A DNA stretch of 44,810 nucleotides from an uncultured Oscillospiraceae bacterium (GTDB lineage Bacteria > Bacillota > Clostridia > Oscillospirales > Oscillospiraceae), in assembly GCA_947629955.1 (NCBI GenBank), contig CANRFT010000015.1, positions 1-44,810 on the forward strand, given 5' to 3'. The position numbers and the translations under genes are program-made. Under the pieces are notes generated by a model. It did not search any database. It was given only the letters and a program-made list of their open reading frames with translations, and was not told the origin of the DNA. How positions within the stretch are numbered: position 1 is the stretch's first letter; each line of letters opens with the position of its first letter. This document shows, in pieces, positions 30,183 to 44,810 of this stretch.

Positions 30183-31967
30183 TCACGGCTGGCCCGCCGG
30201 GGCGGGCGGGTTCTGCTGGTTGGCCTGCGCGGCGCCGCGGCGGGCGTTTCTCTTCTGTATCTCCAGCTGTGCCGCGTCTTTGTTGAACGTGCGCCAGGTG
30301 AATTTGTATACCTCCTTGGCCAGATCCGAGGCGTTTTTCCCGTGGGCGTATACGTCGGCCATGAGCTCGGCAAACGCCTCATCGGGCGTTACGGCGCCGT
30401 ACCGGGAGAGCTGCCCCATGTAGTAGAGATCCATCTTCGCCGCGTCCGCCTTACTCATCTGCTTGGTGCCGGTCCCCGGGTCCACGCTGAAACCCCGTTC
30501 ATTGACACGCGTATCCTTGATCGCTTGGTTCAGGAGCAATTTATCCTCGGCGTTCTTATAGGGATCATACGCATTCTCTTGCGAATCCCGGCTCCCGCCA
30601 AAGTCGACCATGCCGTTTTTGACGTTGCCGTTTTGCGCTTGGATCAGCAGGAAATCGCTGAATCTATGGTCCGCATTGGGATCATTTTTCAACTTTTTCT
30701 TTTCTTTTTCGGACAGCTTGCGGATGGCCTTGTTGAGAATGATGTTAATCGTCTGGGAGTTTTTGCGGTCCTTTGACCAATCCTTTTCCTCCCGGCCCAG
30801 TTTGATAAGAGCGTCAGTGAGCACATGCCCCAGTTCGTGGGCGCCGTCGAATCTGCTGTCGGCGGCATTGAACCGCACCGTATCATCCAGCTCTTTCTTC
30901 ATTGCCTCCGCTGGTTCGGTCGGAGCCTCGTTAGAGGACTTGGCCGGGTTCCAATTGATTATGTTTGGCAACAGCACTTTTGCCGGCGAAGAGGCGCTCA
31001 TGACCGCGCCTTTGTCGGGCTTGATCGCTCCAAAGCCCCCGATCCAGCGCCTCAGGATGGAGAAATCTCCCACCATTCGGGTCATGATGCCTAGCCGCTC
31101 CCGAACTCCTTTTGTGTCGCTGCCGGCGGGAAGCTCTCCGGACAGCTTTCCGGAGGTCATCATCCCCTGGAACGCGTTAAACAGGCCGGACAGATTCTTG
31201 GCCTGGGGGCCGTTCTGAGGACCCAGCGTGTCCAGTTCCTTCTGCAGTTCGGCGTTTCCGGTGGGGTTTTCGGCGTTCTGCGCCAGGGCGGCCGGGTCGA
31301 TTTTCCAGGCCCGGGTCGCATACATTCTTTCGAGCTGCTTCGCGTGGGCTTCGGCCTCGGCCCTCTGCCGTTGGGCCTCGTTCTGCCGTTTCTCCTCCTC
31401 AGCCGCTTCTTTCGCCGCCCGCCGGTCCGCGAACCACTTTTTGATGCGGGCAAAGAAGCCGTCCCCCTGCATGGGGGCCTGGGCCGCCGGGGCGGGGGAA
31501 AAGGACCCCAGCCCGCCGGACAGTCCGCCGCCCATGGCCCGGGAGGCGATGGCGTTGGCCCCCGCCTCCGCGCCGGAGTCGTACAGGGGCAGGCCGGCCT
31601 GGCCGCCCATGCCCCCGCCCCGGCTCTGCTGGACCACGTGGCCCAGCTCATGGGACAGCAGTCGCGCTCCGGCCTCGGTCCCCGGCTGGAAGGCGCCGGG
31701 GGCGAAGCGGATCAGATCGCCCTGGGCGACGGCCCTGGCGCCCAACTGCCCGGGCAGGTCGGACTGGACCAGCCGGACCCGGGAGACGCCGGGGCCGAAG
31801 TGGGACTCCATCCGCTCCCGCATGGCGCCATCCAGGTCGATGGGGCTGGTGTGCTCCCGCTCCACCGCCGCCTGGACAGACCGGACGGCCTCCGCCATCG
31901 GCGCGTCGGAGGGCAGGGACCGGGGGCGGTCCGCCCTGACGCGTTCCTTTTCCGCCCACTGATGCAC
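30183..31967 (-). CDS. eCIS cargo candidate: DUF4157 leader + C-terminal zincin protease
   Basis: This is a 594-residue protein. Residues about 42-145 are a DUF4157 domain, the leader associated with extracellular contractile injection systems (LDGAMRERMESHFGPGVSRV, then HELGHVVQQ at 106-114). AQAPMQ at about 162-167 marks its end. A charged helical segment (about 175-215, EEEKRQNEAQRQRAEAEAH) follows. The C-terminal domain has a second zinc motif, HELGH at 377-381, with DEAFAELMADV at 529-539 as probable source of the third ligand. It therefore looks like an injected metalloprotease toxin. The GTG start at 31967 follows AAGGGAGGG. It has its own promoter and reads away from the main array. 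Confidence 0.8.
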   Translation of the reverse strand: MHQWAEKERVRADRPRSLPSDAPMAEAVRSVQAAVEREHTSPIDLDGAMRERMESHFGPGVSRVRLVQSDLPGQLGARAVAQGDLIRFAPGAFQPGTEAGARLLSHELGHVVQQSRGGGMGGQAGLPLYDSGAEAGANAIASRAMGGGLSGGLGSFSPAPAAQAPMQGDGFFARIKKWFADRRAAKEAAEEEKRQNEAQRQRAEAEAHAKQLERMYATRAWKIDPAALAQNAENPTGNAELQKELDTLGPQNGPQAKNLSGLFNAFQGMMTSGKLSGELPAGSDTKGVRERLGIMTRMVGDFSILRRWIGGFGAIKPDKGAVMSASSPAKVLLPNIINWNPAKSSNEAPTEPAEAMKKELDDTVRFNAADSRFDGAHELGHVLTDALIKLGREEKDWSKDRKNSQTINIILNKAIRKLSEKEKKKLKNDPNADHRFSDFLLIQAQNGNVKNGMVDFGGSRDSQENAYDPYKNAEDKLLLNQAIKDTRVNERGFSVDPGTGTKQMSKADAAKMDLYYMGQLSRYGAVTPDEAFAELMADVYAHGKNASDLAKEVYKFTWRTFNKDAAQLEIQKRNARRGAAQANQQNPPAPAGQP

Positions 31968-32021
31968 GATGGTCCCTCCCTTCCCGAACGGTCTGCCGCA
32001 GCGTATAACTTTACAATTACG

Positions 32022-32064
32022 ATAGTACAGAACCGGAGCGGGAATGTCAACGAAACCGGCGCGG
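32022..32064 (-). promoter_or_regulatory. Promoter of the minus-strand protease cargo gene, with shared element
   Basis: On the minus strand, TTGACA (32045-32050) and TACTAT (32022-32027) are separated by 17 bases. Directly above the -35 lies CCGCGCCGGTTTCG, matching the element found at 32134 and 41131. Confidence 0.65.
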
Positions 32065-32133
32065 ACTGTGCGAAAGCGTACCAAACGGCGGGAGCGGGCG
32101 GAGGGCAAATCCATTCAGGGTAAATGGGAGGAT

Positions 32134-32176
32134 TTCACGCCGGATTCGTTGAGAAATCCGCCCGGCGCGGTATACT
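32134..32176 (+). promoter_or_regulatory. Promoter of the DUF4157 array, with shared element
   Basis: TTCACGCCGGATTC (32134-32147) lies one base above TTGAGA (32149-32154). TATACT (32171-32176) follows after 16 bases. The 14-base element is identical to that at 41131. Confidence 0.7.
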
Positions 32177-32212
32177 GTATGCTGTAAAATACTGTGGGGA
32201 GGGGAGTTTACG

Positions 32213-34207
32213 ATGCTGCAGTGGACGGTGAAAAAGCGGACCGAGACGCAGGCGGCCCCGGCAGCCCGGAGACCCCAGACCGACGCCTCCGGCCCCTCTC
32301 TTGCGGAGCTGGCCGCGGGAGCCATGCCCAGCGCGGAGCAGATGGGCCGGCGGGTGGAGCTGCCCGGCGCCGTGCGGGAGAAGATGGAGGCCTCCTTCGG
32401 GGCGGACTTCTCCGGGGTGAAGCTCTATGAATCCCAGACGGTGGCCGACGCGGGGGCGAAGGCCATGACCATGGGGAGCAATATCGCCTTCGCGCCGGGG
32501 CGGCTGGATCTGGCCAGCACCTCCGGGCAGGCGCTGCTGGGCCACGAGCTGTCCCATGTGGTCAGCCAGGCCCGGGGCGAGAGCGCGGGCCGTGGGTTCC
32601 TGGCCGACGCGGGGCTGGAGGCCCAGGCGGACCGGCAGGGGGCGCTGGCCGCCCAGGGGGAGAGCGTCTATTCCGGCCCGGTGACCCCTCTCAGCGCCGG
32701 CGGGGTGCCCGCCTCCGCCGCGGGGCCCATGCAGGCCGATAAGGAGACGAGCTATAACCCGGGGCCGGAGCCGGACGACAAGCAGATGGACCGCCTGATC
32801 CGTATGCGCCCCTGGAAACGGGATGTGAGCCAGGGCTGGGCCGAGAACAACAACGTCGAAGGGGAGCGGGACCTGTTCTACATGGATCCCGACAAGCTCC
32901 TGCCCCCCGTGGACAAAACGCAGACCGACGACGAGAACCTCGAAAACCTCCAGGATGCCTTCAGCGTCATCGTGGGCCACAAGGTGAAGGGGCATATCCC
33001 CTCCGGCCTGGACCCCCACGGCGTCCGGGAGCGCCTTGTGGAGATGCTCCGGATGCAGCAGAGCGTGCCCCAGCTGCGCCACCGCATCACCAGCTTTGAG
33101 ACCTTAAAAGGCGAGGGCTCCATGTCCACCTCCTTCATGGAGTCCTCGGGGAAATCCGAGTCGTTTCCGCTCCGGTTCAGCGCTGACAGAATGCAATCGG
33201 TCAACGACTGGAAATATATCGACCCGCAACGCTTGCAGGACCCCGCCAACAATCCGAAGGGGCTCAACGCGGAGCAGGTGAAAGAAAACAATGAAACCTG
33301 GTACTGGAAGCGGTATGCCGATGACTGGGGCTGGAGTACGGCGGACGTGCGCTTTTCCGGCACCCATGAGCAGGGGCACATGGTGAGCAGTATCGTGCAC
33401 AACATCATCGCGGATAAGTTTGACAAACAGGAAGGAAATAACCACGGGGGTCATTTCAGCAGGGAGGGCTACAGCCAAGAAATGTATGCCGGGGGTTCGG
33501 TCGCGAGCTACCTCCTCACCCAGGCGCTGGCGAAGGCGGCGCAAAAAGAACAGAAGCAAAATCCCAATGGGCCGCCCGGCCCCTACCAGACCCTGTACAA
33601 CCAACTCAAACTCCAAACCACCGAGGAAAAGCCAAACATCTATTTCGGGGCGCCGGGGCGCGACAATAGTCTGCCGCTGGAGTACGAGGTGCAGGAGCCA
33701 GACGGGAAGGGCGGCACGAGGACGGTCATGAGGCGGAACAAGAAAACCGGCAAGATGAAGAAGGTCAAGAGACGGCGGAGAACGGATATGGAAGTGACCG
33801 AAAAGGTCAAGGAGGGGTTCCGGCGGGAGGCCGCCGACAACCCGGACTCCGACATGGGGAAATTTCTCCATGACAATCCGCACCACGCTCGGGCGAGAAA
33901 ACTCGCCGCGGATGACAGTGATCTCGCCCCGATGACACAGGGGCAGCAGAACCTGTACGCGCTGTATCAGATCGGCGCCATCTCCCGGTACGGGGCTACC
34001 AACCCCGAGGAGGCGGTCGCGGAGGCCATCGCCGACGTCTCCGCCCACGGGAAGGACGCCAGGCTTTACAGCAAGGTCATCTACAAAATCTATTGGGACA
34101 ATCTCAATAAAAGTGCCGCCGATGAGGCGCATCGGAGGCACCAGGTGCGGAATGGCCTGCCGGTGGATCGGCCGGCGTCCCCGCCGGCACCGGCCGGGAC
34201 GCCCTGA
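32213..34207 (+). CDS. eCIS cargo candidate: DUF4157 leader (second type) + zincin protease
   Basis: This 664-residue protein has a DUF4157 leader at about 40-155 with HELSH at 111-115 and an end mark GPMQ at 171-174. Its C-terminal domain resembles that of the divergent gene at 30183: HEQGH at 385-389, and NPEEAVAEAIADV at 597-609 preceded by ISRYGA, just as the other has LSRYGAVTPDEAFAELMADV. A basic insert (NKKTGKMKKVKRRRRTD) lies between the two zinc motifs. The leader differs in type from the 30183 protein, so the same protease family has been joined to two leader types. It begins the plus-strand array. ATG 32213 follows GGGGAGGGGAG. Confidence 0.8.
   Translation: MLQWTVKKRTETQAAPAARRPQTDASGPSLAELAAGAMPSAEQMGRRVELPGAVREKMEASFGADFSGVKLYESQTVADAGAKAMTMGSNIAFAPGRLDLASTSGQALLGHELSHVVSQARGESAGRGFLADAGLEAQADRQGALAAQGESVYSGPVTPLSAGGVPASAAGPMQADKETSYNPGPEPDDKQMDRLIRMRPWKRDVSQGWAENNNVEGERDLFYMDPDKLLPPVDKTQTDDENLENLQDAFSVIVGHKVKGHIPSGLDPHGVRERLVEMLRMQQSVPQLRHRITSFETLKGEGSMSTSFMESSGKSESFPLRFSADRMQSVNDWKYIDPQRLQDPANNPKGLNAEQVKENNETWYWKRYADDWGWSTADVRFSGTHEQGHMVSSIVHNIIADKFDKQEGNNHGGHFSREGYSQEMYAGGSVASYLLTQALAKAAQKEQKQNPNGPPGPYQTLYNQLKLQTTEEKPNIYFGAPGRDNSLPLEYEVQEPDGKGGTRTVMRRNKKTGKMKKVKRRRRTDMEVTEKVKEGFRREAADNPDSDMGKFLHDNPHHARARKLAADDSDLAPMTQGQQNLYALYQIGAISRYGATNPEEAVAEAIADVSAHGKDARLYSKVIYKIYWDNLNKSAADEAHRRHQVRNGLPVDRPASPPAPAGTP
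32281..32742 (+). repeat. DUF4157 leader DNA repeat, copy 1
   Basis: About 460 bases encode the leader from DASGPSL to GPMQ. They closely resemble the three copies at 35235-37746, including long runs of identical codons, but lie about 2.5 kb upstream of them. Confidence 0.75.
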
Positions 34208-34270
34208 CGGGCCAGGAGCCGCCGCGCTGACGCCGCGCCGTGAGCGATACTGCGAAAAGGAGCGTATTCG

Positions 34271-35146
34271 ATGGAGATACAGATGCGCGTATTGGACAGG
34301 CGGGAACTGCCCGGCTTCCGCTCCTACCTGCTCCCCGCGGCCGCCGCGGCCCTTCAGCGAGAGGACAGCTCCCTTCTGGCCCTGGGCGCGGTATCCGGGC
34401 GGTACGCCCTGGGGGCCATCGCCGCGCGGCTGACGGAGAACGGAGAGGCCGTCCTGACCGACCTGTTTGTGGACGAGGCGGCCCGGCGGCAGGGTGTGGG
34501 CAGCCGCCTGCTGGAGGAGCTCTTTCAGCGGCTGCGCGAGCGGGACGTCGACGTGGTGAACGCCGATTACGCGCTGAAGGCCGGGGAAGTGGCCGCCATG
34601 GACGCGCTGCTGATGAAGGCGGGGGCCCCGCCGCCCCAGTTCCGGGCCCTGAGCTTCCGGGCCGACTCCCGGGACTATCACGATCACCACCTCCTGGGCG
34701 TCTGCCTCACCCCCCAGTACAGGACGCCGGAGGGGGTCGTCCCCTTCTTCCAGCTCTCCCGGGAGGCGCTGGCCGAGCTGGAGGGAGCGGAGGACATCCC
34801 CTATGTGCTGTCCTGGTCTCTGCTGAAGGACAGGGCGGTCCCCGACCTGTCGGTGGCCATGGTCCGGGAGGGACGGGTGTCCTCCTATCTGTTGGCGGAG
34901 GAGAGCACCGACGGCGGCTTCGTGCTGCTGTCCGCCGTCCGGCGGGAGGGCTCCAAAGGCTCCGACTTCATGAAGCTGATGCGGGAGCTGGGCAACCGCT
35001 GCTGGTACTGGAAGGGCGGGGACTTCCCCTTTTACTTCTCCGCCGCCAACGAGCACACGGCGCAGCTGGGCCTGGCCCTGATGGGGGACAAGTGCGAGGT
35101 GTACGAGGAGCATATCTGCATCTTTTTCCTGGACGACGAGGACTGA
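34271..35146 (+). CDS. GNAT-family acetyltransferase inside the cargo array
   Basis: This is a 291-residue protein. The acetyl-CoA-binding motif A is LTDLFVDEAARRQGVGSRL at about 65-83, with R-R-x-G-V-G. The C-terminal half has a second, degenerate GNAT-like segment (DFPFYFSAANEHTAQLG), so a tandem-GNAT layout is likely. ATG 34271 follows AAAAGGAGCG. There is no DUF4157 leader, so it is probably not cargo itself. In polymorphic toxin loci such enzymes may modify a toxin or protect the producer. Nothing in the sequence decides between these. Confidence 0.75.
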   Translation: MEIQMRVLDRRELPGFRSYLLPAAAAALQREDSSLLALGAVSGRYALGAIAARLTENGEAVLTDLFVDEAARRQGVGSRLLEELFQRLRERDVDVVNADYALKAGEVAAMDALLMKAGAPPPQFRALSFRADSRDYHDHHLLGVCLTPQYRTPEGVVPFFQLSREALAELEGAEDIPYVLSWSLLKDRAVPDLSVAMVREGRVSSYLLAEESTDGGFVLLSAVRREGSKGSDFMKLMRELGNRCWYWKGGDFPFYFSAANEHTAQLGLALMGDKCEVYEEHICIFFLDDED

Positions 35147-35177
35147 GCGAGCGCGGCCCGCGAGAGGAGGAGAGACT

Positions 35178-35870
35178 ATGTCCCAGATCTATCAGGCACG
35201 CCTGAGGGCGCAGGACGCCCCGGCGGAGAAATATCAAACCAGCGTCCCCGGCCCCTCTATGCAGGAGCTGGCGGCGGGGGCCATGCCCTCAGCTCAGCAG
35301 ATGGGCCATCGGGTGGATTTGCCCGACGCCATCCGGGAGAAGATGGAGACGTCCTTCGGGGCGGACTTCTCCGGGGTAAAGCTCTACGAGAGCCAGACGG
35401 TGGCGGACGCGGGTGCCCAGGCCATGACCATGGGGTCGAATATCGCCTTCGACCCGGGACAGTTGGACCTTTCCAGCACCGCCGGCCAGGCTCTGCTGGG
35501 GCACGAGCTGTCCCACGTAGTCTCCCAGGCCAGGGGCGAGAGTGCGGGCCGGGGGTTCCTGGCCGACGCGGGGCTGGAGGCCCAGGCGGACCGGCAGGGG
35601 ATGCTGGCCGCCCAGGGGGAGAGCGTCTACACCGGCCTGGTGGCGCCGCTGAGCGCCAGCGGGGTGCCCGCCTCCGCCGGGGGGCCCATGCAGGCTGCGA
35701 AGCACACCGATGAAGAGGAAGCGCGGGCCGCGGAAGCGGCTAACAAGTATGGCGAAGGCCTTCCCTCCAAGTTTTGGCATCCCTTCAAGCGGAGCCAGGC
35801 CATCGACCAATGGCTGAACTTTGAACCTGCTCCTATCAAAGCGATTGATGATTACGATGATGTCTATTGA
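35178..35870 (+). CDS. Short DUF4157 protein, leader almost alone
   Basis: This 230-residue protein has the full leader (residues about 25-173, with HELSH at about 109-113 and GGPMQ at the end), followed by only about 55 residues. These include an acidic patch (HTDEEEARAAEAANKYGEG) and an aromatic tail (LPSKFWHPFKRSQAIDQWL). The tail ends in DDYDDVY at a normal stop. It could be an inactive cargo left after loss of its toxin, or a structural or adaptor protein. ATG 35178 follows GAGAGGAGGAGA. It is co-directional with both neighbours. Confidence 0.75.
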   Translation: MSQIYQARLRAQDAPAEKYQTSVPGPSMQELAAGAMPSAQQMGHRVDLPDAIREKMETSFGADFSGVKLYESQTVADAGAQAMTMGSNIAFDPGQLDLSSTAGQALLGHELSHVVSQARGESAGRGFLADAGLEAQADRQGMLAAQGESVYTGLVAPLSASGVPASAGGPMQAAKHTDEEEARAAEAANKYGEGLPSKFWHPFKRSQAIDQWLNFEPAPIKAIDDYDDVY

Positions 35871-37746
35871 GGATAATGATGGCGGCGACTTCTTCTCCCT
35901 GCCAGCGGGCAGCTGGTAGGTACAGCGAAAGGCGGGATACGAATGTCACAGATCTATCAGGCGCGCCGGAGGAGGCAGGACGCCCCGGCGGCAAAAGAAT
36001 TTCAAACCAGCGTCCCCGGCCCCTCCATGCGGGAGCTGGCGGCCGGCGCTATGCCCTCTACCGAGCAGATGGGCCGGCGGGTGGATTTGCCCGACGCCGT
36101 CCGGGAGAAGATGGAGGCCTCCTTCGGGGCGGACTTCTCCGAGATGAAGCTCTACGAGAGCCAGACGGTGGCCGACGCAGGGGCGGAGGCCATGACCATG
36201 GGGTCGAATATCGCCTTCGCGCCGGGGCAGCTGGATCTGACCAGCACCGCCGGCCAGGCGCTGCTGGGCCACGAGCTGAGCCATGTGGTGAGCCAGGCAA
36301 AGGGCGAGAGCGCGGGCCGGGGCTTTCTGGCCGACGCGGGGCTGGAGGCCCAGGCGGATCGGCAGGGGATGCTGGCCGCCCAGGGAGAGAGCGCCTACGG
36401 CGGGCCGGTGGCCCCCCTCAGCGCCAGCGCGGTGCCCGCCGCCGCTGCGGGAGTGGCCCAGGCCAAGAAGAAAAGCGAGATCGCGAGAGAGGCCCATAAT
36501 AAGGACTATGAAGCGGATCTCTCGAGGCCGAGCATGTGGCTGCGCGGGGGGCGCGATTCAGATCGAGAGAAAGCGCTCAGCCTGATGCCGGCCGGGGGCG
36601 AGCACATAGACGAGCTCGCGCAGTCGGGCTATCTGGACCTGGCAACGTTCAAAATGAACCAGACGCAGGATGCGGACGAGCGGCAGGGGATTCTGGACCT
36701 CTTTCTGGGCGGCGACCAGGACCGGATCAACGCCTATATCAAGAACGACTCGACGGGGGTGCTCCAGGAGATGAGGGCCGCTTCGAACGACCTGATCCAG
36801 GAGAATTTCCAGACCCGGGCCGACGCCTATGGACGGTCGGCAGCGACCAACAATCACCTGCTGGCGCTGGAAAAGGCCGGCCTCGCCAATCTGCTGGACG
36901 AGAATGAGCGGGCCGAGTTCCAGGGCGCAAGTGAAAACTTCAGGCAGGACCGCCGCCAGCAGTTCGGCAGCCTGGCCACCGCAATGGGCTGGAAGGGCCA
37001 TCGGGAAATGCGGGACGAGCGGAAGAAGTACCGGAACAAGCGCAGGCGCGGGATGACCGCCGCCGAGATGGCCGCGCGAAGGGCGGAGAAAGCGAGAATC
37101 AGAGATGAGCAGAGTCAGGCGGAGTCGGGTACTACAGTGAGAACCCTCACTCCAGAAGAAATACGCGAGATGCTGGGCGGCTATTATTGAGTACATTCCG
37201 CCGGAAGGAGGAAACACGGTATGTCCCAGACCTATCAGGCCCGCCGCAGGGCGCGGGACGTCCCGGCGGCAAAGGAATATCAAACCAGCGTCCCCGGCCC
37301 CTCCATGGGGGAGCTGGCGGCGGGGGCCATGCCGTCCACCGAGCAGATGGGCCGCCGGGTGGAGCTGCCCGACGCCATCCGGGAGAAGATGGAGGCCTCC
37401 TTCGGGGCGGACTTCTCCGGGGTGAAGCTCTACGAGAGCCAGACGGTGGCCGACGCGGGGGCGGAGGCCATGACCATGGGCTCCAACGTGGCCTTCGCAC
37501 CGGGGCAGCTGGACCTGGTCAGTACCTCCGGCCAGGCGCTGCTGGGGCACGAGCTGAGCCATGTGGTCAGCCAGGCCAGGGGCGAGAGCGCGGGCCGGGG
37601 CTTTCTGGCCGACGCGGGGCTGGAGGCCCAGGCGGACCGGCAGGGGGCTCTGGCCGCCCAGGGGGAGAGCGTATACACCGGGCCGGTGGCGCCGCTGAGC
37701 GCCAGCGCGGTGCCCGCCTCTGCCGCCGGGCCCATGCAGGCGGCGA
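35235..37746 (+). repeat. Three further DUF4157 leader DNA copies in tandem genes
   Basis: Copies run about 35235-35700, 36001-36467 and 37281-37746. Each starts with AAACCAGCGTCCCCGGCCCC and ends near GGCCCATGCAGG or its variant. They share most bases with one another and with the copy at 32281, while the DNA after each is unrelated or only distantly related. This is the pattern left by recombination between leaders. Confidence 0.8.
35943..37190 (+). CDS. eCIS cargo candidate: DUF4157 leader + helical repeat-unit domain
   Basis: This 415-residue protein has the leader at about 25-173 with HELSH at 110-114; the end mark here is AGVAQAKKK instead of AGPMQ. The C-terminal region (about 180-400) is rich in charged helices. 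A segment at about 228-285 ([19 protein letters not shown], then [20 protein letters not shown], then VLQEM) resembles the repeat domain of the next protein. The tail is very basic ([20 protein letters not shown]) and ends in [14 protein letters not shown]. There is no catalytic motif that I recognise. The ribosome site before ATG 35943 is weak. Confidence 0.7.
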
Positions 37747-39287
37747 AGCAGTCCACCGTGGAGGCGGAGAAGGAGGCCGCCCTGCGCGGCGAACAGCTGC
37801 CCAGCCATCTGCACTTCATCCAGCGCAGCCGGGCCAAGCAGAACTATCTGGATATGCGGGCCAAGCGCATACGGATGGGCGAGCTGGCCGGGGAGGTCCT
37901 CAGCGAGGTAAACAATCAGAACGACGAGCTCACAAACTACGCCGCCGTCGTCATGAGTGTATACATGAACACCATCGGCAGGCACGGCGATAGCTTCGAG
38001 CACGATTACAGCAGATACCCGACCAGATACCTGGAGAGCGGCCTGAAGGGCAAGTCCGTGAAGGAGCAGAAGGCCATGATGGATGCCTTCGGCAGGGATG
38101 GCGGGCGCGACGAGGATCTCGCCCCCTTCCTCATCCAGGATATCCGCAGATTCGCCGGGAATGACTCGGGCGGCGTCCTGGACGAGGACGACGAGAAGGT
38201 CATGGCCGCCTACAGGAGAGACGCGCAGGCCAATTTGCATCAGGCGAACGTATACGATCTGCTGTCCAGACACCATTTCGACAAAAGCACGCTGGTGGGC
38301 CCGGGAAAGCTGTCCCAAAAGGAACTGGACGACTTTATGTCGAACCCGTTCCCGAGTGATGTAAACAAAGCCGCCGGTCTGATTGAAACGATCCGGCTGA
38401 TGGGCTCCGACAGCACCTACAGGGCCGGCAAAGAGATATATGATAACTCTCTCCCGGTCCGGGAGGCAGACCGGGCCGAGTGGCGCAGGTGGCTCGAGAG
38501 ACGGAACGCGCCGGACCCCGGCCCGGCCGCGGCGGCCGCGGTCAGCACCCAGGTGACGGCGCCGCCCCCGGATCAAGAGCCCGCGTCCACCGGCGAGGGA
38601 GCGGGGGCGGCTGACCAGCCCGGCAAGAAACACCGCCGCAAACGCTCCACGTCCGGCAAGAAACACCGCCACAAGCATTCCGCGTCCGGCGGCGAGGGGT
38701 CGAATGAGACCTCAAACGAACTCCAGATCGACGTGAGCCCCGAACAGGTCGCCCGACTCGTGGGCCCCGCGGACGAGAGAGGGCAGGCCATCGAGGCCTA
38801 CCTGCGGGGCGGCATGGGCGTTCACTCCCAGGAGGAGCGGGAGCAGATGTACGCGGACCTCCACCCCGGCGGGCAGGGGGAGAACAGCCAGGAAAAGTTG
38901 CTCCAATATGTGGCCGGGGACATCAGGACCTTCCTCGATACGGACATCCGCGGCCTGAACGATGAGGATGACGAAGTAGTAAAAAACGCCCATGGAGCGT
39001 TGTCGGGGATCGGCGGCATGATGGAGGGCATCCAGGCGGTGCTGCCGTATCTCCCGGAGAAGGAGCTGAGGAAGGCTCTGGGCGCGGCAAAGGGCGGGAA
39101 CCGGCTGGACAAATTCAACAGAAAGGCCGGCCGTTTCCGCACGGCGATGGCGGGCGCGGACGCGACCCTGAATCTCTATCTGGCCAGGGACCGCGGGAGA
39201 GCGTACGAGGCCGAGTTGCGCGCGGAGCAGGCGGCAAGGAAGGAACGGCGCAAAACAGCGAAAAAAAAGAACTTCAGAAAGGGTTGA
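37221..39287 (+). CDS. eCIS cargo candidate: DUF4157 leader + two copies of an unknown domain
   Basis: This 688-residue protein has the leader at about 25-173 (HELSH 110-114, GPMQ 170-173). Two similar domains follow at about 268-410 and about 525-668. The first has DIRRFAGNDSGGVLDEDDE and the second DIRTFLDTDIRGLNDEDDE, each followed by a helical region of similar length. The linker (about 430-500) is Ala/Pro-rich and carries two basic repeats, GKKHRRKRSTS and GKKHRHKHSAS. The C-terminus is strongly basic (RKERRKTAKKKNFRKG). The function is unknown; the basic linkers could bind nucleic acid. ATG 37221 follows GGAAGGAGGAAA. Confidence 0.7.
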   Translation: MSQTYQARRRARDVPAAKEYQTSVPGPSMGELAAGAMPSTEQMGRRVELPDAIREKMEASFGADFSGVKLYESQTVADAGAEAMTMGSNVAFAPGQLDLVSTSGQALLGHELSHVVSQARGESAGRGFLADAGLEAQADRQGALAAQGESVYTGPVAPLSASAVPASAAGPMQAAKQSTVEAEKEAALRGEQLPSHLHFIQRSRAKQNYLDMRAKRIRMGELAGEVLSEVNNQNDELTNYAAVVMSVYMNTIGRHGDSFEHDYSRYPTRYLESGLKGKSVKEQKAMMDAFGRDGGRDEDLAPFLIQDIRRFAGNDSGGVLDEDDEKVMAAYRRDAQANLHQANVYDLLSRHHFDKSTLVGPGKLSQKELDDFMSNPFPSDVNKAAGLIETIRLMGSDSTYRAGKEIYDNSLPVREADRAEWRRWLERRNAPDPGPAAAAAVSTQVTAPPPDQEPASTGEGAGAADQPGKKHRRKRSTSGKKHRHKHSASGGEGSNETSNELQIDVSPEQVARLVGPADERGQAIEAYLRGGMGVHSQEEREQMYADLHPGGQGENSQEKLLQYVAGDIRTFLDTDIRGLNDEDDEVVKNAHGALSGIGGMMEGIQAVLPYLPEKELRKALGAAKGGNRLDKFNRKAGRFRTAMAGADATLNLYLARDRGRAYEAELRAEQAARKERRKTAKKKNFRKG

Positions 39288-39389: not shown

Positions 39390-40952
39390 TCACAGGGAAA
39401 AGAGACCCTGGTCACTGAAGTCGTCATCGTAGTCATCGTCGTCATCATCCGGGGCAGGGAGCTGAGAGATGGGAGAAGTGGCGTCAGAGAGCGAGCCCCC
39501 GGCGTCCAGGTCCTCCAGCTCAAGGCCGTCATCCTCGCCGTCCTCCACCGAGACAGGAGACTGAGAGAAGGGGGAAGCGCGGTTAGAGAGCAGATTCTCG
39601 GCATCGTTCCCGATGATCGCCTGTTCCTCATTGCCGCCTTCGCCGACGGGGACCGGGCTGCCGTTTTCGTCCACGAGGACCAGATCACCGTTCTCGTCGG
39701 CGACCAAATCATCGGTATCGTTCGCGCCGATGATCACTTCTTCCTCATTGCCGCCGTCATCCAGGACGGGAGGCGCCGCCGGTGCGGCGGGAGTTTCCTC
39801 GACTGCCGGAGCGGCGGCTTCCACCGCCGGGGCAGCGGACGCTGGGGCCTCTTCCACCGGGGCGGGCGCGGGGGCCGCCTGAGCTGCCCGGGCTGCCCGC
39901 CTCGCCGCCTGCGCGGCCCGGCGTTCCGCCTTTGCGGCCCGGTACGCGGCCCGGCGTTCCGCCCGGCGCTGCAGGGCGATGTTCCGCAGGACGTCGAACT
40001 GGTGTCCGCCCTGATACTCCTCCTCGCCGTCCTCCGCGGCGGGGGCGCTCCACTGGGCAAAGCGCTGTTTCAGCCCGCCCAGCATGCCGCCGAACCACTG
40101 ACCAATGCCCGCCAGCGCTCTGGGACGCGAATCGTTCCCAAACACATTCCCGATGTCCGGGCCGGCCACGTCGCTGCCGCCTTCACCGCTGCCGTTCTCC
40201 TCCATGGCAGCGGGCGGCGGGGCGGGGATATCGTCGTCAAGGATCAGGCCGTCGTTGATGATCCCTTCCTCATAGTCATCCTCATCGTCCAAGACGGCGG
40301 GCTGAGGGGCGGGGGAGGTGTCGTTGGAGGGCAGATCCTCGGCATCCAGGTCGTCCAGTTTGAAGCCGTCGGAGCGGGACCTGAAGAGTGACCATCCCAG
40401 CTTTTTCGCCCTGCCGCTGATCCAGCTGGTGAAGCGGTTGCCCTCCATGGGGGCCTGGGCGGCGGGGACGGGGGAGAAGGAGCGGACCGGTCCGGCGGAC
40501 AGGCCGCCGCTGGCGGCCTGGAAGGCCATATCGTCGGCGGCGTGCTCGGCGATGGGGTCGTAGAAGGGCAGTCCGGCCCGGGCGGCGGGGTCTATGCCCC
40601 GGCTCTGGCGGACCAGGTGGCCCAGCTCGTGGGAGAGCAGCCGCTCCCCCTCCGGGGTGTCGGGCCGGTAGGCGCCGGGGGCGAAGCGGATCACATCGCC
40701 CTGGGCCACCGCGTCGGCCCCCAGGCGGCCGGGCAGGGAGGACTCCTCCAGCCGCACGGCGGAGAAGTCCAGACCGAACTGCTGCTCCATCCGCTCCCGC
40801 ATGGCGGCGTCCAGGTCCAGGGGCCGGCGGTTGTCCCCGGCGGAGGCGGCCTGGACGATCTGGCCCAGCTGGGCCGCCGCCGTCTCAGGCTGGTCGGGGG
40901 CCTTCTGGGCCTCCGTGTGCTCCGGGACCTGCTTTTCCATCTGCGTCCACAT
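39390..40952 (-). CDS. DUF4157 protein with long acidic, low-complexity tail
   Basis: This 520-residue protein has a DUF4157 leader (LDAAMRERMEQQFGLDFSAV, then HELGHLVRQSRG) of the same subtype as the protease gene at 30183, ending at AQAPMEGN. The rest is mostly disordered: Asp/Glu-rich stretches (LDDEDDYEEGIINDG, PAPDDDDDDYDDDF), an Ala/Arg-rich coiled segment (AERRAAQAARRAARAAQAA) and near-repeats GGNEEEVIIGAND and GGNEEQAIIGND. No catalytic motif is visible. It may be a DNA-mimic-like cargo, an adaptor or a structural filler. ATG 40952 follows GAGAGGGGGAAGAG; earlier in-frame starts lie before the promoter. Confidence 0.65.
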   Translation of the reverse strand: MWTQMEKQVPEHTEAQKAPDQPETAAAQLGQIVQAASAGDNRRPLDLDAAMRERMEQQFGLDFSAVRLEESSLPGRLGADAVAQGDVIRFAPGAYRPDTPEGERLLSHELGHLVRQSRGIDPAARAGLPFYDPIAEHAADDMAFQAASGGLSAGPVRSFSPVPAAQAPMEGNRFTSWISGRAKKLGWSLFRSRSDGFKLDDLDAEDLPSNDTSPAPQPAVLDDEDDYEEGIINDGLILDDDIPAPPPAAMEENGSGEGGSDVAGPDIGNVFGNDSRPRALAGIGQWFGGMLGGLKQRFAQWSAPAAEDGEEEYQGGHQFDVLRNIALQRRAERRAAYRAAKAERRAAQAARRAARAAQAAPAPAPVEEAPASAAPAVEAAAPAVEETPAAPAAPPVLDDGGNEEEVIIGANDTDDLVADENGDLVLVDENGSPVPVGEGGNEEQAIIGNDAENLLSNRASPFSQSPVSVEDGEDDGLELEDLDAGGSLSDATSPISQLPAPDDDDDDYDDDFSDQGLFSL

Positions 40953-41174: not shown

Positions 41175-41243
41175 ATCCTCGTCCCAACGGGTGTTCCGGA
41201 AAGGCGGTTCGGAGAAACGGCGAAGGCGGCGGAGGGAGACGAG

Positions 41244-41609
41244 ATGCACATCGCGGTCTGCGACAGCGTCCGGCAGGACGCCGAACACATGGAGCGGTGG
41301 ATCAGGGAGTACTGCGCGCTCTATCAGCTCCCGGTGTCGCTGCGGGTTTTTCACGACCCGGAGGAATTCAACGCCTGCCAGGACCGCTTCGATCTGTCCT
41401 ACATCTGTTTCGGAGGCAGCACGGGATTTTTGCGGGCCCGCCTGCTGCGGGAGCGGGACAAAAACTGCCGCATCGTCCTGGTGGACGACACGCGGGAGTT
41501 CGCCGTGGCCAGTATGCGCATCCACTGCACCGATTTCATCCTGCGGCCGGTGACCTTTTCCCACATCGTGCGGAGCATGGGCCTGGCCGGAGTGGGAGGG
41601 AAGTCATGA
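41244..41609 (+). CDS. Stand-alone degenerate response-regulator receiver domain
   Basis: This 121-residue protein follows the order of a CheY-like receiver of the LytTR type: MHIAVCDSVRQDAEHMERWI, then FDLSYICFGGSTGF, then CRIVLVDDTREFAVASMRIHC, then TDFILRPV. The usual phosphoacceptor LD in the third strand is replaced by the ICFGG sequence, and the conserved K-P near the end is R-P. It therefore probably does not receive phosphate, and no output domain follows. ATG 41244 follows GGAGGGAGACGAG, and its stop overlaps the next gene as ATGA. It is likely a scaffold or chaperone-like relic in the injection locus. Confidence 0.55.
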   Translation: MHIAVCDSVRQDAEHMERWIREYCALYQLPVSLRVFHDPEEFNACQDRFDLSYICFGGSTGFLRARLLRERDKNCRIVLVDDTREFAVASMRIHCTDFILRPVTFSHIVRSMGLAGVGGKS

Positions 41610-42781
41610 GCCGCGTCCAGACGAAAAAGCGCCTGGACCCTCTCCCCCGCCAGAAGGCCCAGTTGGAGAAGACCCTGCTGCATCAGTCCGCCTGGGCGGC
41701 GGGGACCGAGTTCTTCCAGTACCGCGACCCGGTGTACCACATCACCGAGAGCTTTCAGCAGACCTTCGACGCCATGGGCCGCAAGCACACCGGTGATCTG
41801 ACCAGGGCCCAGGGCGGTCAGGAGGGGGCGCAGGCCCCCCGGACCGGCGAGGCGCTCCAGGGCGCGGAGCAGACGCATATCAGCGCCCCGGAGAGCTTTT
41901 ACAGCGCCCAGAGGGATGGGCAGCAGGTTCCGGATCCCACCTCCAGCCGATCCTTCTACCAGATGAAGAACGAGGGGGATCAGGACCAGCTCCGCCGGTT
42001 TTCCGAGACCGCCTTTCAGAGGGGCACCCTCTCGGCGGCGGTCCTCCAGGGCACCGGGCGGATGATGCTGTTTTCCTGCATGAAAAAGACCATCGGTCAA
42101 TCCCAGCCCGTCAAGGAGCAGCAGCGACGGCTCTTTGACAACGCCTCCCCGGTGCGCAATATGCCCGGCCAGATCCCTAACCAGGTGGTGTTCAACCGCA
42201 CCTTCACCGACAGCGCCGTGGGCGTGGTGGTGGATACCCTCCGGGACGCCCGCCGCACGGTGGAGAGCATGCAGGACCTGGTGTCCGGCAAGCTGAACAG
42301 GACCGAGGCGGGCAAGTATGGGGCGGACACCCTGTGGAACATGTATCCGTTTTTGGATGACAGCCGGGAGAAGGCCCTGCTGGAGCAGTATCTGGCACAG
42401 CTGAACGGCCCGAAGGACCTGAGCGCCGACGAGCGGGGCCTGATCCAGAGCGCCGTGGACCGGGTGCGGACCCTGCTGGACAAAAAGGCCAGGATGCGGG
42501 TGGAATTTATCAACAAGCTGCGCTTTCTCTCCGACCGGGCCAACGAGGCTCTGGCTGAGTTCGAGGAGCCGGACTTCACTGCCGCCCTGGACGAGGCCCT
42601 GCGGGAGGCCCTGGGGGCCGAACAGCCCCCGCCGGAGGGGGACGGCGAGATCCCTCCGGAGGAGGAGCCCTTCGGCGGAGAGGAGGGGGAGCCCCTTGGA
42701 ACAGCAGAACCAGTCCCGGACGGCCCGGACGGAACAGCGCCAGGAGCAGAGAGTGCCGGAGCGCCAGCCCCGGAGGGCTGA
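41606..42781 (+). CDS. Unknown protein of the injection-system locus
   Basis: This 391-residue soluble protein has no signal peptide. The middle is helical (VVVDTLRDARRTVESMQDL, then VDRVRTLLDKKARMRVEFI). The last 60 residues are acidic and Pro/Gly-rich (PPEGDGEIPPEEEPFGGEEG). It begins four bases inside the preceding gene (ATGA). The next gene starts inside its 3' end in another frame. I do not recognise a family. Its position between cargo genes and sheath suggests an assembly or loading role. Confidence 0.6.
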   Translation: MSRVQTKKRLDPLPRQKAQLEKTLLHQSAWAAGTEFFQYRDPVYHITESFQQTFDAMGRKHTGDLTRAQGGQEGAQAPRTGEALQGAEQTHISAPESFYSAQRDGQQVPDPTSSRSFYQMKNEGDQDQLRRFSETAFQRGTLSAAVLQGTGRMMLFSCMKKTIGQSQPVKEQQRRLFDNASPVRNMPGQIPNQVVFNRTFTDSAVGVVVDTLRDARRTVESMQDLVSGKLNRTEAGKYGADTLWNMYPFLDDSREKALLEQYLAQLNGPKDLSADERGLIQSAVDRVRTLLDKKARMRVEFINKLRFLSDRANEALAEFEEPDFTAALDEALREALGAEQPPPEGDGEIPPEEEPFGGEEGEPLGTAEPVPDGPDGTAPGAESAGAPAPEG

Positions 42782-43103
42782 GCGGGACCAGCTGACCCAG
42801 GCCGGCCTGCTGGCCCAGGCGGCCCTGGAGGGGATGCCCCTGCTGGACGCGCCGCCCCAGACCCTGGAGGAATTGGCGGGTTGGGTGGGCAATACCGCCA
42901 TGCAGGCCCTGCTGGACGCCCAGACGCCACAGCCGGAGGAATTCTTCTTTTCCCTGCCGGAGGGGGAGCCGGACACGGCCCCCATCCAGGTCCCGGCCAT
43001 GGAGCCCGCGCTGGTCCGGCCCGATGGGCTGAGCGCCGCCTCGGACATGGGCGGGATACCGGCAGCGCAGGGAGGAGTGACCGCCGATGGACCCGCGATT
43101 TGA
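42696..43103 (+). CDS. Small eCIS-locus protein, TTG start overlapping the previous gene
   Basis: This 135-residue protein has a basic, Gln/Arg-rich N-terminus (EQQNQSRTARTEQRQEQR). The centre reads LTQAGLLAQAALEGMPLLDA, then LEELAGWVGNTAMQALLDAQ. The GN-x-A-x-x-x-LL pattern resembles a short motif often seen in DUF4157-related eCIS proteins. TTG 42696 is chosen because GAGGAGGGGGAG lies just before it. The first 86 bases overlap the preceding gene in a different frame, and the end overlaps the next gene by 17 bases. The role is unknown. Confidence 0.5.
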   Translation: MEQQNQSRTARTEQRQEQRVPERQPRRAERDQLTQAGLLAQAALEGMPLLDAPPQTLEELAGWVGNTAMQALLDAQTPQPEEFFFSLPEGEPDTAPIQVPAMEPALVRPDGLSAASDMGGIPAAQGGVTADGPAI

Positions 43104-43515
43104 AGTTCCCGTGGACGCAGCAGGGGAGATGGAGGCCCTGCTGGAGCGCAGCGGGGCGGACTTCCGCCGGGAGGGGGACCGGTTCCGGCTCCGGTTCGCC
43201 GCCGGAGGCTGCCGCTGGCAGGCGGTGTGCCAGTGCCGGGGAGATCTGGCCATGATCTACCACCTCCATCCGGCGAAGGTGGAGGATACGGAAAAGGCCC
43301 TGGAGCTGTGCTCCCGCCTCAATGCCCGGGTGATCCGGGGGAGCTTCTTTCTTCGGGAGGGGACCATCGTCTTCCGGGACGGCGCGGAGCTGACCGAGCA
43401 CTGGGATGCCCAGGACCGGCTGGCCCGGGCTGTGGAGTACGGAACGGCGGTGTTCGTCAGATTCTGGGAGGCACTGTCCGCCGCGGCGGACGGCCTCCTG
43501 CTGGACTGTGAGTGA
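43087..43515 (+). CDS. YbjN-like small protein, possible chaperone
   Basis: This is a 142-residue alpha/beta protein. The pattern ALELCSRLNARVIRGSFFL, then REGTIVFRDGAEL, then AVEYGTAVFVRFWEAL resembles YbjN/CesT-like folds, which act as chaperones in other secretion systems. The resemblance is weak and judged by eye. ATG 43087 follows GGGAGGAG. It lies between the small GN-motif protein and the sheath gene. A cargo-chaperone function would fit the locus, but is an inference. Confidence 0.5.
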   Translation: MDPRFEVPVDAAGEMEALLERSGADFRREGDRFRLRFAAGGCRWQAVCQCRGDLAMIYHLHPAKVEDTEKALELCSRLNARVIRGSFFLREGTIVFRDGAELTEHWDAQDRLARAVEYGTAVFVRFWEALSAAADGLLLDCE

Positions 43516-43588
43516 GTCCGAATTACGCGGAAGACCCGCGTTTTGGAATATCAGCGCAAAAAATAAATTTATTGACAGAAAGGAGGGC

Positions 43589-43627
43589 GCTTCACGTCCT
43601 GTGTACCTAAGAAAACTGGCGTGAAGC
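43589..43627 (+). promoter_or_regulatory. Leader hairpin between ribosome site and sheath start codon
   Basis: GCTTCACG (43589-43596) and CGTGAAGC (43620-43627) are perfect complements, extended by one GU and one CG pair. An AGGAGGG stretch (43581-43587) lies just before the hairpin and ATG 43636 just after it. If the hairpin folds, the two would be brought to about ten bases apart. The gap 43516-43588 also holds a weak terminator-like hairpin at about 43525-43545 and an isolated TTGACA at 43572. Confidence 0.5.
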
Positions 43628-43635
43628 AACGAAAC

Positions 43636-44810
43636 ATGGCAGAGTATCTATCCCCGGGTGTCTATGTGGAGGAGTACGATTCCGGCGCGACACCCATGCA
43701 GGGCGTGAGCACCAGCACGGCCGGCTTTGTCGGTCTGGCGGAGCGGGGGCCGGCCATCGGCCAGCCCCAGCTGGTCACCAGCTTTGCCGACTACAAGCGG
43801 ATGTACGGAGGTTATCTCAGCGAGGCCGCCTACGGCAGCAACCGCTTCCTGCCCTACGCGGTGGAGCAGTTCTTCGCCAACGGCGGTTCCCGGGCCTATA
43901 TCATGCGGGCGGTGCCCAGCGACGCCAAGGCGGCCTCTATCACCGCCGGCGTGCTGAAGATCACCGCCGCCAGCCCCGGCGCCTGGGCGGAGGATCTGCG
44001 GGTGACCATCGCCCCCGCCTCCAAGGCAAAGACCCAGGTGCTGGCCGTCAACGGGGCCGACCTGACCCTGAAGAACGCCGACGGCTTCAACCCCGGCGAC
44101 GTGGTGGAGCTGTTCGACGGCAAGAATACCGCCTACGCCTCCGTCAAGAGCGCCCTGGACAAGGTGGTCACTCTGGACGCCCCCTGCACCCTGGACGTGG
44201 CCGACGCCAAGGTGGGCACCGCCAAGTACATCAAGACCTGTGAGATCACCATCACCGCCCGCCTGGGCGACGCGGTGGAGACCTATGAGAACCTGTCCCT
44301 CAAGGACGGCGCTCTGAACAACGCCGCCGTCAGAACCGTCAGGAGCGACCTCATCAGGGTGGGGATCGCCCCCGCCAAGGCCCCCGCCCCCGCCAAGGAC
44401 AAGGACGGCAAGGAGGTCCCCGCCCCCAAGACGGCGGCCCCCACCCCCTTCAAGCAGTGCGGCGGCGACAAGGAGCCCCTGGTCCTGGTCCTCCAGGGCG
44501 GCAGCGACGGCTCCGTGCTCACCGCCACCGCCGACGCCTTCCTGGGCGTGGACGACGGCCCGGGCAAGCGCACCGGCCTGCAGGCCTTCCTGGAGAACGG
44601 GAACGTGTCCATTATGGCCATCCCCGGCGTCACCGCGCCCGAGGTCCAGGCGGCCCTCATCGGCTTCTGCGAGGCCAAGAAGAGCTGCTTCGCCCTGCTG
44701 GACGTGCCCATGGACCTGTGCAAGACCGACGAAGTGGCCAACTTCCGGGATATGTACGACTCCACCTACGCCGCCATGTATCACCCCTGGCTGGAGATGT
44801 ACGACGCCGG
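43636..44810 (+). CDS. Contractile tail sheath protein of an eCIS (partial)
   Basis: The gene runs off the right edge after 391 codons. The start MAEYLSPGVYVEEYDSG, then VSTSTAGFVGLAERGP, is typical of sheath proteins in eCIS and phage tails. SRAYIMRAVPSDAKAAS follows, then an inserted domain (about 80-250) and a conserved core with LVLQGGSDGS, DDGPGKRTGLQAFL, NVSIMAIPGV and FALLDVPMDLC. The sheath polymer contracts to drive the inner tube through a target membrane. ATG 43636 is favoured over the in-frame GTG 43621 by similarity to family starts. Confidence 0.9.
   Translation, partial: MAEYLSPGVYVEEYDSGATPMQGVSTSTAGFVGLAERGPAIGQPQLVTSFADYKRMYGGYLSEAAYGSNRFLPYAVEQFFANGGSRAYIMRAVPSDAKAASITAGVLKITAASPGAWAEDLRVTIAPASKAKTQVLAVNGADLTLKNADGFNPGDVVELFDGKNTAYASVKSALDKVVTLDAPCTLDVADAKVGTAKYIKTCEITITARLGDAVETYENLSLKDGALNNAAVRTVRSDLIRVGIAPAKAPAPAKDKDGKEVPAPKTAAPTPFKQCGGDKEPLVLVLQGGSDGSVLTATADAFLGVDDGPGKRTGLQAFLENGNVSIMAIPGVTAPEVQAALIGFCEAKKSCFALLDVPMDLCKTDEVANFRDMYDSTYAAMYHPWLEMYDA

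What the first reader, a model, noticed from the sequence alone, without database searches (positions are those of the whole stretch)
30183..44810. Edge of an extracellular contractile injection system locus with six DUF4157 proteins in a Clostridia-like genome
Seen: six proteins with a DUF4157-like leader (HE-L-[GS]-H context) within 11 kb, followed by a tail sheath and small unknown genes with overlapping starts. Known: DUF4157 is strongly associated with eCIS cargo, and sheath genes define contractile systems. Inferred: this is a cargo-loading region of an eCIS, and the number of leaders in one place is unusually high. No phage head, terminase or portal genes are visible.
Basis: partly seen in the sequence, partly recalled or inferred. 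Interest (0 to 1): 0.9.

Follow-up and report, generated by a model that had tools for sequence, protein, structure and literature searches.

The report
Mix-and-match cargo array of injection machine
A bacterium related to gut species carries genes for a phage-tail-like molecular syringe next to a row of cargo genes that begin with nearly the same tag but end in different payloads, and a relative carries ten such genes in one place, suggesting that these bacteria swap payloads behind a fixed tag.

Summary
In detail: six eCIS_core (DUF4157) proteins in 11 kb, then a tail sheath running off the contig end. An exact 77-base overlap leads into contig C44: sheath end, three tube proteins, CIS_tube/LysM, hub, spike, gp25, two baseplate-J proteins, no recognised head or packaging genes. 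It is a contractile injection system (CIS) of the eCIS lineage, in a genome whose same-genus relatives are Oscillospiraceae MAGs. The locus recurs in rabbit, chicken and rumen MAGs and in Agathobaculum massiliense. Cargo proteins share a ~174-residue leader; tails differ. One relative has nine in tandem plus one reversed. Leader and tail histories disagree: leaders largely group by genome, tails do not, and synonymous divergence clashes in 7 of 8 pairs. Some relatives' tails are ADP-ribosyltransferases or hydrolases. I read this as a recombining cargo array. Relatives with longer loci also encode three membrane proteins where fibres usually lie, so release from the cell ('extracellular') is unproven; those genes were not found in this assembly. 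New variant of a known kind.

The parts
30183..31967 (-). E1: class-B leader + tail with HELGH ... EAFAE metallopeptidase-like motif (GTG start at 31967 taken; an ATG at 32114 is in frame)
   Evidence: PF13699 66.5 bits; motifs; tail related to that of E2
32213..34207 (+). E2: class-A leader + tail with HEQGH ... EAVAE motif, homologous to the E1 tail
   Evidence: PF13699 74.4 bits; alignment A5; the AlphaFold2 model was poor
34271..35146 (+). GNAT-type acetyltransferase at the head of the tandem E3-E5
   Evidence: PF00583 36.2 bits, cut-off 20.7; homologue found in 29 of 72 related loci (three of the 29, L072, L097 and L098, repeat DNA already held)
35178..35870 (+). E3: class-A leader + short tail (57 aa)
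   Evidence: PF13699 77 bits; tail family of 5
35943..37190 (+). E4: class-A leader + tail (241 aa) modelled as all-helical
   Evidence: PF13699 73.8 bits; tail model pLDDT 91.7, pTM 0.84
37221..39287 (+). E5: class-A leader + long tail in the same sequence cluster as that of E4
   Evidence: PF13699 74 bits; tail cluster 0
39390..40952 (-). E6: class-B leader + acidic low-complexity tail; same place and strand in G029 and in L070
   Evidence: PF13699 66.9 bits; homologues at L058 18178- and L070 18668-
32216..37520 (+). four direct repeats of 300 nt (at 32216, 35175, 35943, 37221) = the 5' ends of E2-E5, the others 77-89% identical to the copy at 35943
41244..41609 (+). response-regulator-like protein, conserved in the locus; no Pfam or NCBIfam match, so the name is my reading
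   Evidence: homologues in the syntenic position; no family match
41606..42781 (+). U1: conserved locus protein, 391 aa, function unknown
   Evidence: no family above cut-off
42696..43103 (+). U2: small conserved protein with the motif WVGNTAMQALL
   Evidence: overlaps its neighbours
43087..43515 (+). YbjN / T3SS-chaperone-like protein
   Evidence: PF10722 23.4 bits (cut-off 22); TY-Chap1 15.8 bits, below its cut-off of 27
43621..44810 (+). contractile sheath, N-terminal 396 aa; runs off the contig and continues on contig C44
   Evidence: 77-base exact overlap of contig ends; PF04984 63.9 bits on C44

Best explanation
The region is the cargo end of a contractile injection system of the eCIS lineage. 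Each cargo protein has a fixed ~174-residue leader (a start that looks disordered and basic by eye, then the eCIS_core domain, mostly ending in 'PMQA') and a variable tail, the payload. The leader is read by the machine, probably with the help of the AAA+ ATPase and perhaps the YbjN-like protein, so that a tail behind it is loaded and delivered when the sheath contracts. Because the leaders lie in tandem as near-repeats, recombination between them homogenises them within a genome and lets tails be gained, lost and exchanged. Shown: the machine genes, the shared leader, the sharp leader/tail border, discordant leader and tail histories, toxin domains in some relatives' tails. Inferred: loading by the leader, delivery, recombination as the cause, and the target.
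For: Machine. Mean class-A leader identity within arrays 74-97% aa, falling to 0-33% per 30-column block past the leader in the five class-A same-array pairs profiled. Leader DNA tree, 61 rows: 19 label changes, minimum 16, shuffled mean 47.8, 0 of 200 shuffles as low. Matched 16 genes: leader DNA 7 changes (0 of 200 as low), tails 10 (121 of 200). Tails of L062_5698 and L104_1654 are 81% identical, their leaders 70%, while each leader is 81-82% nt identical to its closest array neighbour. Synonymous divergence differs between leader and tail in 7 of 8 pairs at bootstrap support of 0.97 or more: tail lower in four, leader lower in three. E1 and E2 have homologous tails behind leaders of different class, and both are missing from the same place in G029. 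ADP-ribosyltransferase (5 of 110 tails) and alpha/beta-hydrolase (4 of 110) domains in relatives.
Against: None of this window's own six tails has an enzyme domain above a Pfam cut-off; E1 and E2 show HExxH motifs only, and E6's tail is low-complexity. Leaders do not all group by genome: 5 of the 15 groups listed (L070, L062, G000, L076, L061) are not one side of a branch, and one G015 leader groups with those of L104 (support 98). At protein level the matched leader tree is less clear (8 changes, 4 of 200 shuffles as low). Tail trees have long branches and few supported forks. The eight pairs were picked by me from related tails. No expression, particle or loading data.
Confidence: 0.75

Rival explanations
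1. Not a rival to the cargo array but to 'extracellular': the machine is not released but docks at the producer's own membrane (as T6SS, thylakoid CIS or the Streptomyces CIS do), and the cargo acts on neighbours in contact or inside the producer. Membrane proteins encoded between baseplate and Pvc16 replace tail fibres.
For: In G043, G042 (A. massiliense), G015, G004 and G029 homologues of a ~600-aa protein, a HAMP protein, a 138-aa protein and a MORN-repeat protein lie between the tail-protein-I and Pvc16_N/PAAR/AAA genes; a ~237-aa protein lies there in the four genomes looked at. In G043 and G042, the two for which helices were computed, the HAMP protein has four membrane helices, the 138-aa protein one at its C-terminus and the MORN protein one. 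Of 42 genus genomes 3 have a strong MORN-protein match (E<=1e-166), all with eCIS_core genes. [quoted passage not shown]
Against: The ~600-aa protein could be a fibre or adaptor; no fibre profile was at hand. Fibre adaptors of type eBAP3 are reported in Bacillota eCIS (PMC12923769, passages). These genes were not found in the window's own assembly, and G019, G026 and G031 have eCIS_core but no MORN match either. Membrane proteins could serve sensing or release rather than docking.
Confidence: 0.4
2. The eCIS_core arrays are not injected cargo but structural or assembly proteins (tube plugs, chaperones), the variable helical tails being fillers.
For: Eighteen of 64 array tails fall in one divergent cluster, modelled for E4 as all-helical with no clear fold match. 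E6 keeps its place in three genomes with a low-complexity tail. PMC11297309 itself suggests a chaperone role for DUF4157 (passage).
Against: The same leader carries ADP-ribosyltransferase domains at 54-100 bits (cut-off 23.4) in relatives. E4 against its closest relative shows dN/dS 1.58 in the tail and 0.19 in the leader, against 0.11-0.34 in nine genes or gene parts of the machine locus; bootstrap P(dN>dS) 0.976.
Confidence: 0.2
3. Ordinary phage or prophage remnant: the sheath and baseplate belong to a myophage.
For: The genome does have a prophage-like region on contig C8 with sheath, capsid-like, portal-like and terminase-like ORFs (names read from the ORFs, no profile run).
Against: No head, portal or terminase was recognised on C44 or in the loci of G043 and G042, nor in a PHROGs scan of ten locus proteins of these two genomes; the eCIS markers CIS_tube, Pvc16_N, PAAR-like and AAA+ are there.
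Confidence: 0.03
4. The array is an assembly artefact of collapsed or mis-joined near-repeats.
For: The genome is a fragmented assembly (75 contigs), and leader repeats could mis-join reads.
Against: The same order (GNAT, leader genes, E6, receiver-like gene, U1) occurs in the separate assemblies G029 and L070. The 12-kb array of nine lies within a 185-kb contig.
Confidence: 0.04

Closest known systems
eCIS with DUF4157 toxins (EATs) of Geller et al. 2021 (PMC8213781) and Danov et al. 2024 (PMC11297309)
   Same: CIS core genes; cargo with N-terminal DUF4157 and C-terminal toxin; several per genome possible
   Different: Geller et al. [quoted passage not shown] here cargo lies upstream of the sheath, in tandem, in relatives of gut bacteria, with leaders alike within a genome
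Streptomyces CIS with CisA (PMC12237407)
   Same: monoderm host; membrane protein gene just downstream of the baseplate in place of fibres (passages)
   Different: Here, in relatives, three membrane proteins (HAMP, C-terminal-helix, MORN) and a cargo array; similarity to CisA was not tested by sequence
Bacteroidetes injection systems of the human gut (BIS; PMC7394362 seen in a listing only; PMC12210884 passages)
   Same: CIS of gut bacteria; a DUF4157 cargo candidate is described in PMC12210884
   Different: Other phylum; PMC12210884 reports human-gut CIS as predominantly Bacteroidota with one in Proteobacteria
Polymorphic toxins (Rhs, CDI; recalled, not tested)
   Same: constant delivery part, exchangeable toxin C-terminus
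   Different: Here whole leader-plus-tail genes stand in tandem, and 26 of 37 gaps between them are 15-81 bp, too short for an immunity gene

Membership tests
eCIS lineage of contractile injection systems | contractile sheath and tube genes | tested here: met
   PF04984 63.9 bits; three PF06841 hits of 51-125 bits on C44
eCIS lineage of contractile injection systems | CIS_tube/LysM adaptor, hub and spike | tested here: met
   PF19266 90.3 bits, LysM 26 bits, Phage_base_V 74.4 bits; the hub match (PF05954) is below its cut-off, 25.6 of 30.1
eCIS lineage of contractile injection systems | gp25 and baseplate wedge | tested here: met
   PF04965 81.5 bits; PF04865 32.3 and 54.5 bits
eCIS lineage of contractile injection systems | AAA+ ATPase, Pvc16_N, PAAR | tested here: inconclusive
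   G043: AAA 116 bits, Pvc16_N 94 bits; homologues of all three in G042, G043, G004, G015, G029. In the window's genome the locus breaks off at the end of C44 and no CIS-type ATPase was found among 16 of 18 AAA hits
eCIS lineage of contractile injection systems | no head, portal or terminase genes in the locus | tested here: met
   ORFs of C44 and of the G043 and G042 loci; PHROGs scan of ten locus proteins
eCIS lineage of contractile injection systems | eCIS_core cargo | tested here: met
   six proteins, 66-77 bits, cut-off 22
Extracellular mode of action | particles released and bound to targets by tail fibres | not testable with these tools
   no fibre profile at hand; the ~600-aa protein after the baseplate has no Pfam match
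Membrane-docked CIS (CisA type) | membrane proteins encoded in the CIS locus | tested here: inconclusive
   present in relatives: hydropathy, HAMP and MORN matches in G042 and G043; not found in the window's genome; docking itself not testable
Zinc metallopeptidase (E1, E2 tails) | HExxH plus a downstream glutamate in a known peptidase fold | tested here: inconclusive
   motifs kept in 4 of 4 aligned tails, two of which are close kin, 69% alike; Peptidase_M78 on E1 below cut-off, 16.4 of 22; E2 model pLDDT 45

The most novel reading that the evidence does not exclude
Gut Clostridia of the Intestinimonas/Agathobaculum/Butyricicoccus group have a membrane-docked, signal-gated injection machine whose cargo is a recombining array: a bank of payloads exchanged behind a homogenised loading tag, under diversifying selection and mostly without linked immunity genes, hence aimed at eukaryotic cells of the gut (epithelium or protozoa).
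Probability: 0.2. Interest if true: 0.88.

Novelty: new variant of a known kind. Interest (0 to 1): 0.62.

Why it matters
One published survey describes eCIS as depleted in mammalian and avian microbiomes (PMC8213781) and another describes human-gut CIS as predominantly of Bacteroidota (PMC12210884; passages only). Here about one in eleven sampled genomes of one clostridial family has the cargo domain (36 of 400), its relatives coming from rabbit, chicken and rumen samples by their titles, and a named strain, Agathobaculum massiliense Marseille-P4005, has the locus. So the role of such syringes in the gut could be tested. The arrays are a natural experiment on what the eCIS_core leader does: nature has placed one leader in front of dozens of different payloads.

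Tried and rejected

Papers: ten searches. By the titles and abstract starts listed, none describes a tandem, homogenised leader array or a CIS in Oscillospiraceae; three lists were cut (12 of 15, 8 of 362, 12 of 2,388), and subscription journals and preprints are not held. PMC10266427 holds 'contractile injection' and 'Oscillospiraceae' and was seen in the listing only. Seven papers were opened, passages only: PMC11297309, PMC8213781, PMC12210884, PMC12923769, PMC10598620, PMC12237407, PMC12998442.

Rows dropped: the leader tree used 61 of 150 distinct eCIS_core proteins (chosen arrays, 5'-complete, 200 bits or more, without three class-B rows; E1 fell under 200 bits). The matched test used 16 of the 18 members of tail cluster 0 (the long E5 and L070_16766 tails were left out). 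Of 150 proteins, 113 tails were listed and 110 scanned (three short ones left out); many of these tails begin inside the leader's end because of a loose cut.
Full report
What is there. The window is the whole of contig C15 of an unnamed 2.2-Mb genome in 75 contigs, 98.5% complete. Six ORFs between 30183 and 41060 carry the Pfam domain eCIS_core (PF13699, formerly DUF4157) at 66-77 bits; a seventh lies alone on contig C39. E2, E3, E4 and E5 are on the + strand with one kind of leader (class A); E1 and E6 are on the - strand with another (class B, shared with C39). A GNAT-type acetyltransferase (34271-35146) stands before E3. Then come a receiver-like gene, U1, U2, a YbjN-like gene and the sheath, which runs off the contig at 44810.

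The machine. Contig C44 begins with the last 77 bases of the window, exactly, and with the rest of the sheath. It encodes three tube proteins, a small protein similar to a phage tail assembly chaperone (phrog_508, E 1.6e-6) with zinc-ribbon matches below cut-off, a 1263-aa low-complexity protein, CIS_tube with LysM, a hub, a spike, gp25, two baseplate-J proteins and the start of a tail-protein-I-like gene. No head or packaging gene was recognised. C44 ends inside that last gene and no other contig overlaps it. A MORN protein of the distal locus was not found in the assembly, nor a CIS-type ATPase among 16 of 18 AAA hits. A prophage-like region on C8 accounts for the second sheath.

Relatives. 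A scan of species genomes with the leader alignment gave 72 loci. Of their record titles 34 name Oscillospiraceae, 24 other Clostridia or Bacillota, 11 Bacteroidota, Cyanobacteria or Proteobacteria-type genera, and 3 something else. Isolate names point to rabbit ('Lapin', my reading), chicken and rumen. The source of the window's own genome is not told; that it is a gut bacterium is inferred. Agathobaculum massiliense Marseille-P4005 is in the list as a named strain (that it is a human isolate is recalled). PF13699 occurs in 8 of 42 genomes of the genus, 36 of 400 sampled in the family and 11 of 398 sampled in the phylum, 9 over the cut-off. In the family sample 8 of the 36 have four or more copies, the most being 12. 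Fourteen of the 72 loci hold three or more eCIS_core ORFs, fragments counted; three of the 14 (L071, L072, L097) are the same DNA as G031, G029 and G015. L070 holds nine in tandem and one reversed. Sheath homologues lie within reach in 17 of the 72 loci (many contigs are short). The order array, receiver-like gene, U1, YbjN-like gene, sheath, tubes is kept across genera, with a GNAT gene in 29 of 72 loci but none found in A. massiliense. G029, whose baseplate-region proteins are 92-96% identical to those of this genome, has GNAT, array, E6, receiver-like gene and U1 in the same order.

The array. Leaders are ~174 aa long and mostly end in 'PMQA'; mean class-A identity within arrays is 74-97%. 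In E4 against E5 the identity per 30-column block is 0.70-0.97 in the leader and 0.03-0.23 in the next ten blocks. As DNA the start of E2-E5 is a four-copy, 300-nt direct repeat. Tails fall into many families: of 64 array tails, 18 join one divergent cluster and 20 stand alone. Of 37 gaps between neighbouring cargo genes in 11 arrays, 26 are 15-81 bp, one is an overlap and ten are 100 bp or more (one of these holds the GNAT gene of the window); 4 of the 11 arrays, the nine-gene array of L070 among them, have no gap over 81 bp. So in much of the arrays there is no room for an immunity gene; in G015 there is.

Do leader and tail share a history? Leaders largely group by genome: 61 leaders from 17 arrays need 19 label changes, 16 being the minimum; shuffles average 47.8 and none of 200 is as low. 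Against this, 5 of the 15 groups listed are not one side of a branch (G000, L061 and L070 intermix; L062 and L076 are split), and one leader of G015 groups with L104 at support 98. For 16 genes of tail cluster 0 the leader DNA tree needs 7 changes (0 of 200 shuffles as low), the leader protein tree 8 (4 of 200), the tail tree 10 (121 of 200, no better than chance). Single pairs agree: the tails of L062_5698 and L104_1654, from MAGs titled Oscillospiraceae and Christensenellaceae, are 81% identical and their leaders 70%, while each leader is 81-82% nt identical to its closest array neighbour. Synonymous divergence of leader and tail differs in 7 of 8 pairs: the tail is lower in E4/L070_12657 (0.13 against 0.41), L073/L075, L062/L104 and L076/L084; the leader is lower in L083/L086, C39 and E6; E3/L070_7951 is undecided. 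Nine other genes or gene parts of the locus have dS 0.25-0.39 between G000 and L070's genome, so the E4 tail seems more recently shared than the locus. Its dN/dS is 1.58 (bootstrap support for dN above dS 0.976); it is the only one above 1 of the eight tails tested, and with GC-rich third positions this is a hint, not proof. E1 and E2, side by side, have homologous tails (29% identical) behind leaders of different class, and the place they occupy, between the SLH protein (28140-30107) and the GNAT gene, is without them in G029. Lineage-specific duplication of whole genes would make tails group by genome too. Leader conversion or tail capture, or both, is the simplest account.

What the payloads are. 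In this window only motifs are seen: HExxH and E..AE in E1, E2 and C39 (9 of 150 proteins have HExxH past residue 180); Pfam and PDB matches are below threshold. The E4 tail is modelled with confidence as an all-helical domain (pLDDT 91.7) with no clear match. In relatives 5 of 110 tails match ADP-ribosyltransferase exoenzymes (54-100 bits, cut-off 23.4), 4 of 110 alpha/beta hydrolases, and 4 of 110 weakly PI3/PI4 kinases. These are toxin-like activities, and some would act on eukaryotes. Few immunity genes would fit that, but E. coli-active eCIS toxins without a linked immunity gene are also known (PMC8213781, passages).

How it may be deployed. In G043, A. massiliense, G004, G015 and G029 the baseplate genes are followed by homologues of a ~600-aa protein, a HAMP protein, a 138-aa protein, a MORN-repeat protein, Pvc16_N, a PAAR-like protein and an AAA+ ATPase (in G015 and G029 the locus is split over contigs); in four of them a ~237-aa protein was also found. 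In G043 and A. massiliense, where helices were computed, the HAMP protein has four membrane helices, the 138-aa protein one at its C-terminus and the MORN protein one. A SpoIIE-type phosphatase and/or a LytTR regulator homologue lies at an end of each of the five. In Streptomyces the membrane protein CisA, needed for firing, is encoded where other eCIS have fibres (PMC12237407, passages). So a membrane-docked, signal-gated machine is a serious alternative to a released one; I give it 0.4, and it is compatible with the cargo array. In this window's genome that part was not found; G037, a more distant genome of the genus, has another gene order.

Comparison with print (passages only). Geller et al. 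[quoted passage not shown] a survey found human-gut CIS predominantly in Bacteroidota (PMC12210884); Danov et al. name a Moorena with 18 predicted toxins, half with DUF4157 (PMC11297309); a 2026 catalogue finds fibre adaptors also in Bacillota (PMC12923769). So eCIS in Bacillota, DUF4157 cargo and many cargo genes per genome are known; a tandem, leader-homogenised array and the membrane gene set in gut Clostridia were not seen in what my searches listed (see Tried and rejected for their limits).

Verdict. Observation confirmed, interpretation supported with the release mode open. New variant of a known kind, interest 0.62.

Noticed in passing
G000 contig C39:5592-7262 (L009): A seventh eCIS_core protein with a metallopeptidase-like tail lies alone, with no CIS gene recognised around it; its G029 counterpart has a leader 96% and a tail 68% identical.
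   Followed up: partly
G000 contig C44:3078-6869 (L015): A 1263-aa low-complexity protein between tube and LysM genes, with diverged repeats ending in GEELIHYAGPE or similar; in more distant relatives mainly the N-terminal ~110 aa is kept. A tape-measure role is possible but untested.
   Followed up: no
34271-35146: A GNAT acetyltransferase stands at the head of many arrays (29 of 72 loci have a homologue); it might modify the cargo or protect the producer.
   Followed up: partly
42696-43103: U2 carries the motif WVGNTAMQALL, which I recall from other eCIS-linked proteins ('GN.AV..LL'); not tested.
   Followed up: no
28140-30107: NlpC/P60 and S-layer-homology protein next to the cargo, 89% identical and syntenic in G029.
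   Followed up: partly
26563-27912: Sigma-54 factor gene (all three Pfam domains) about 2 kb from the cargo; link to the CIS unknown.
   Followed up: no
G000 contig C8:4000-16000 (L016): A prophage-like region with its own sheath and tail genes.
   Followed up: partly
L080 and L082: Two contigs of one MAG (CANPWA010000036 and 37, 20,350 and 20,340 bases) look like copies of one CIS locus in opposite orientation; probably an assembly duplicate.
   Followed up: no
L101:13582-16482: One cargo protein with two eCIS_core domains in tandem, perhaps a step of leader duplication.
   Followed up: no
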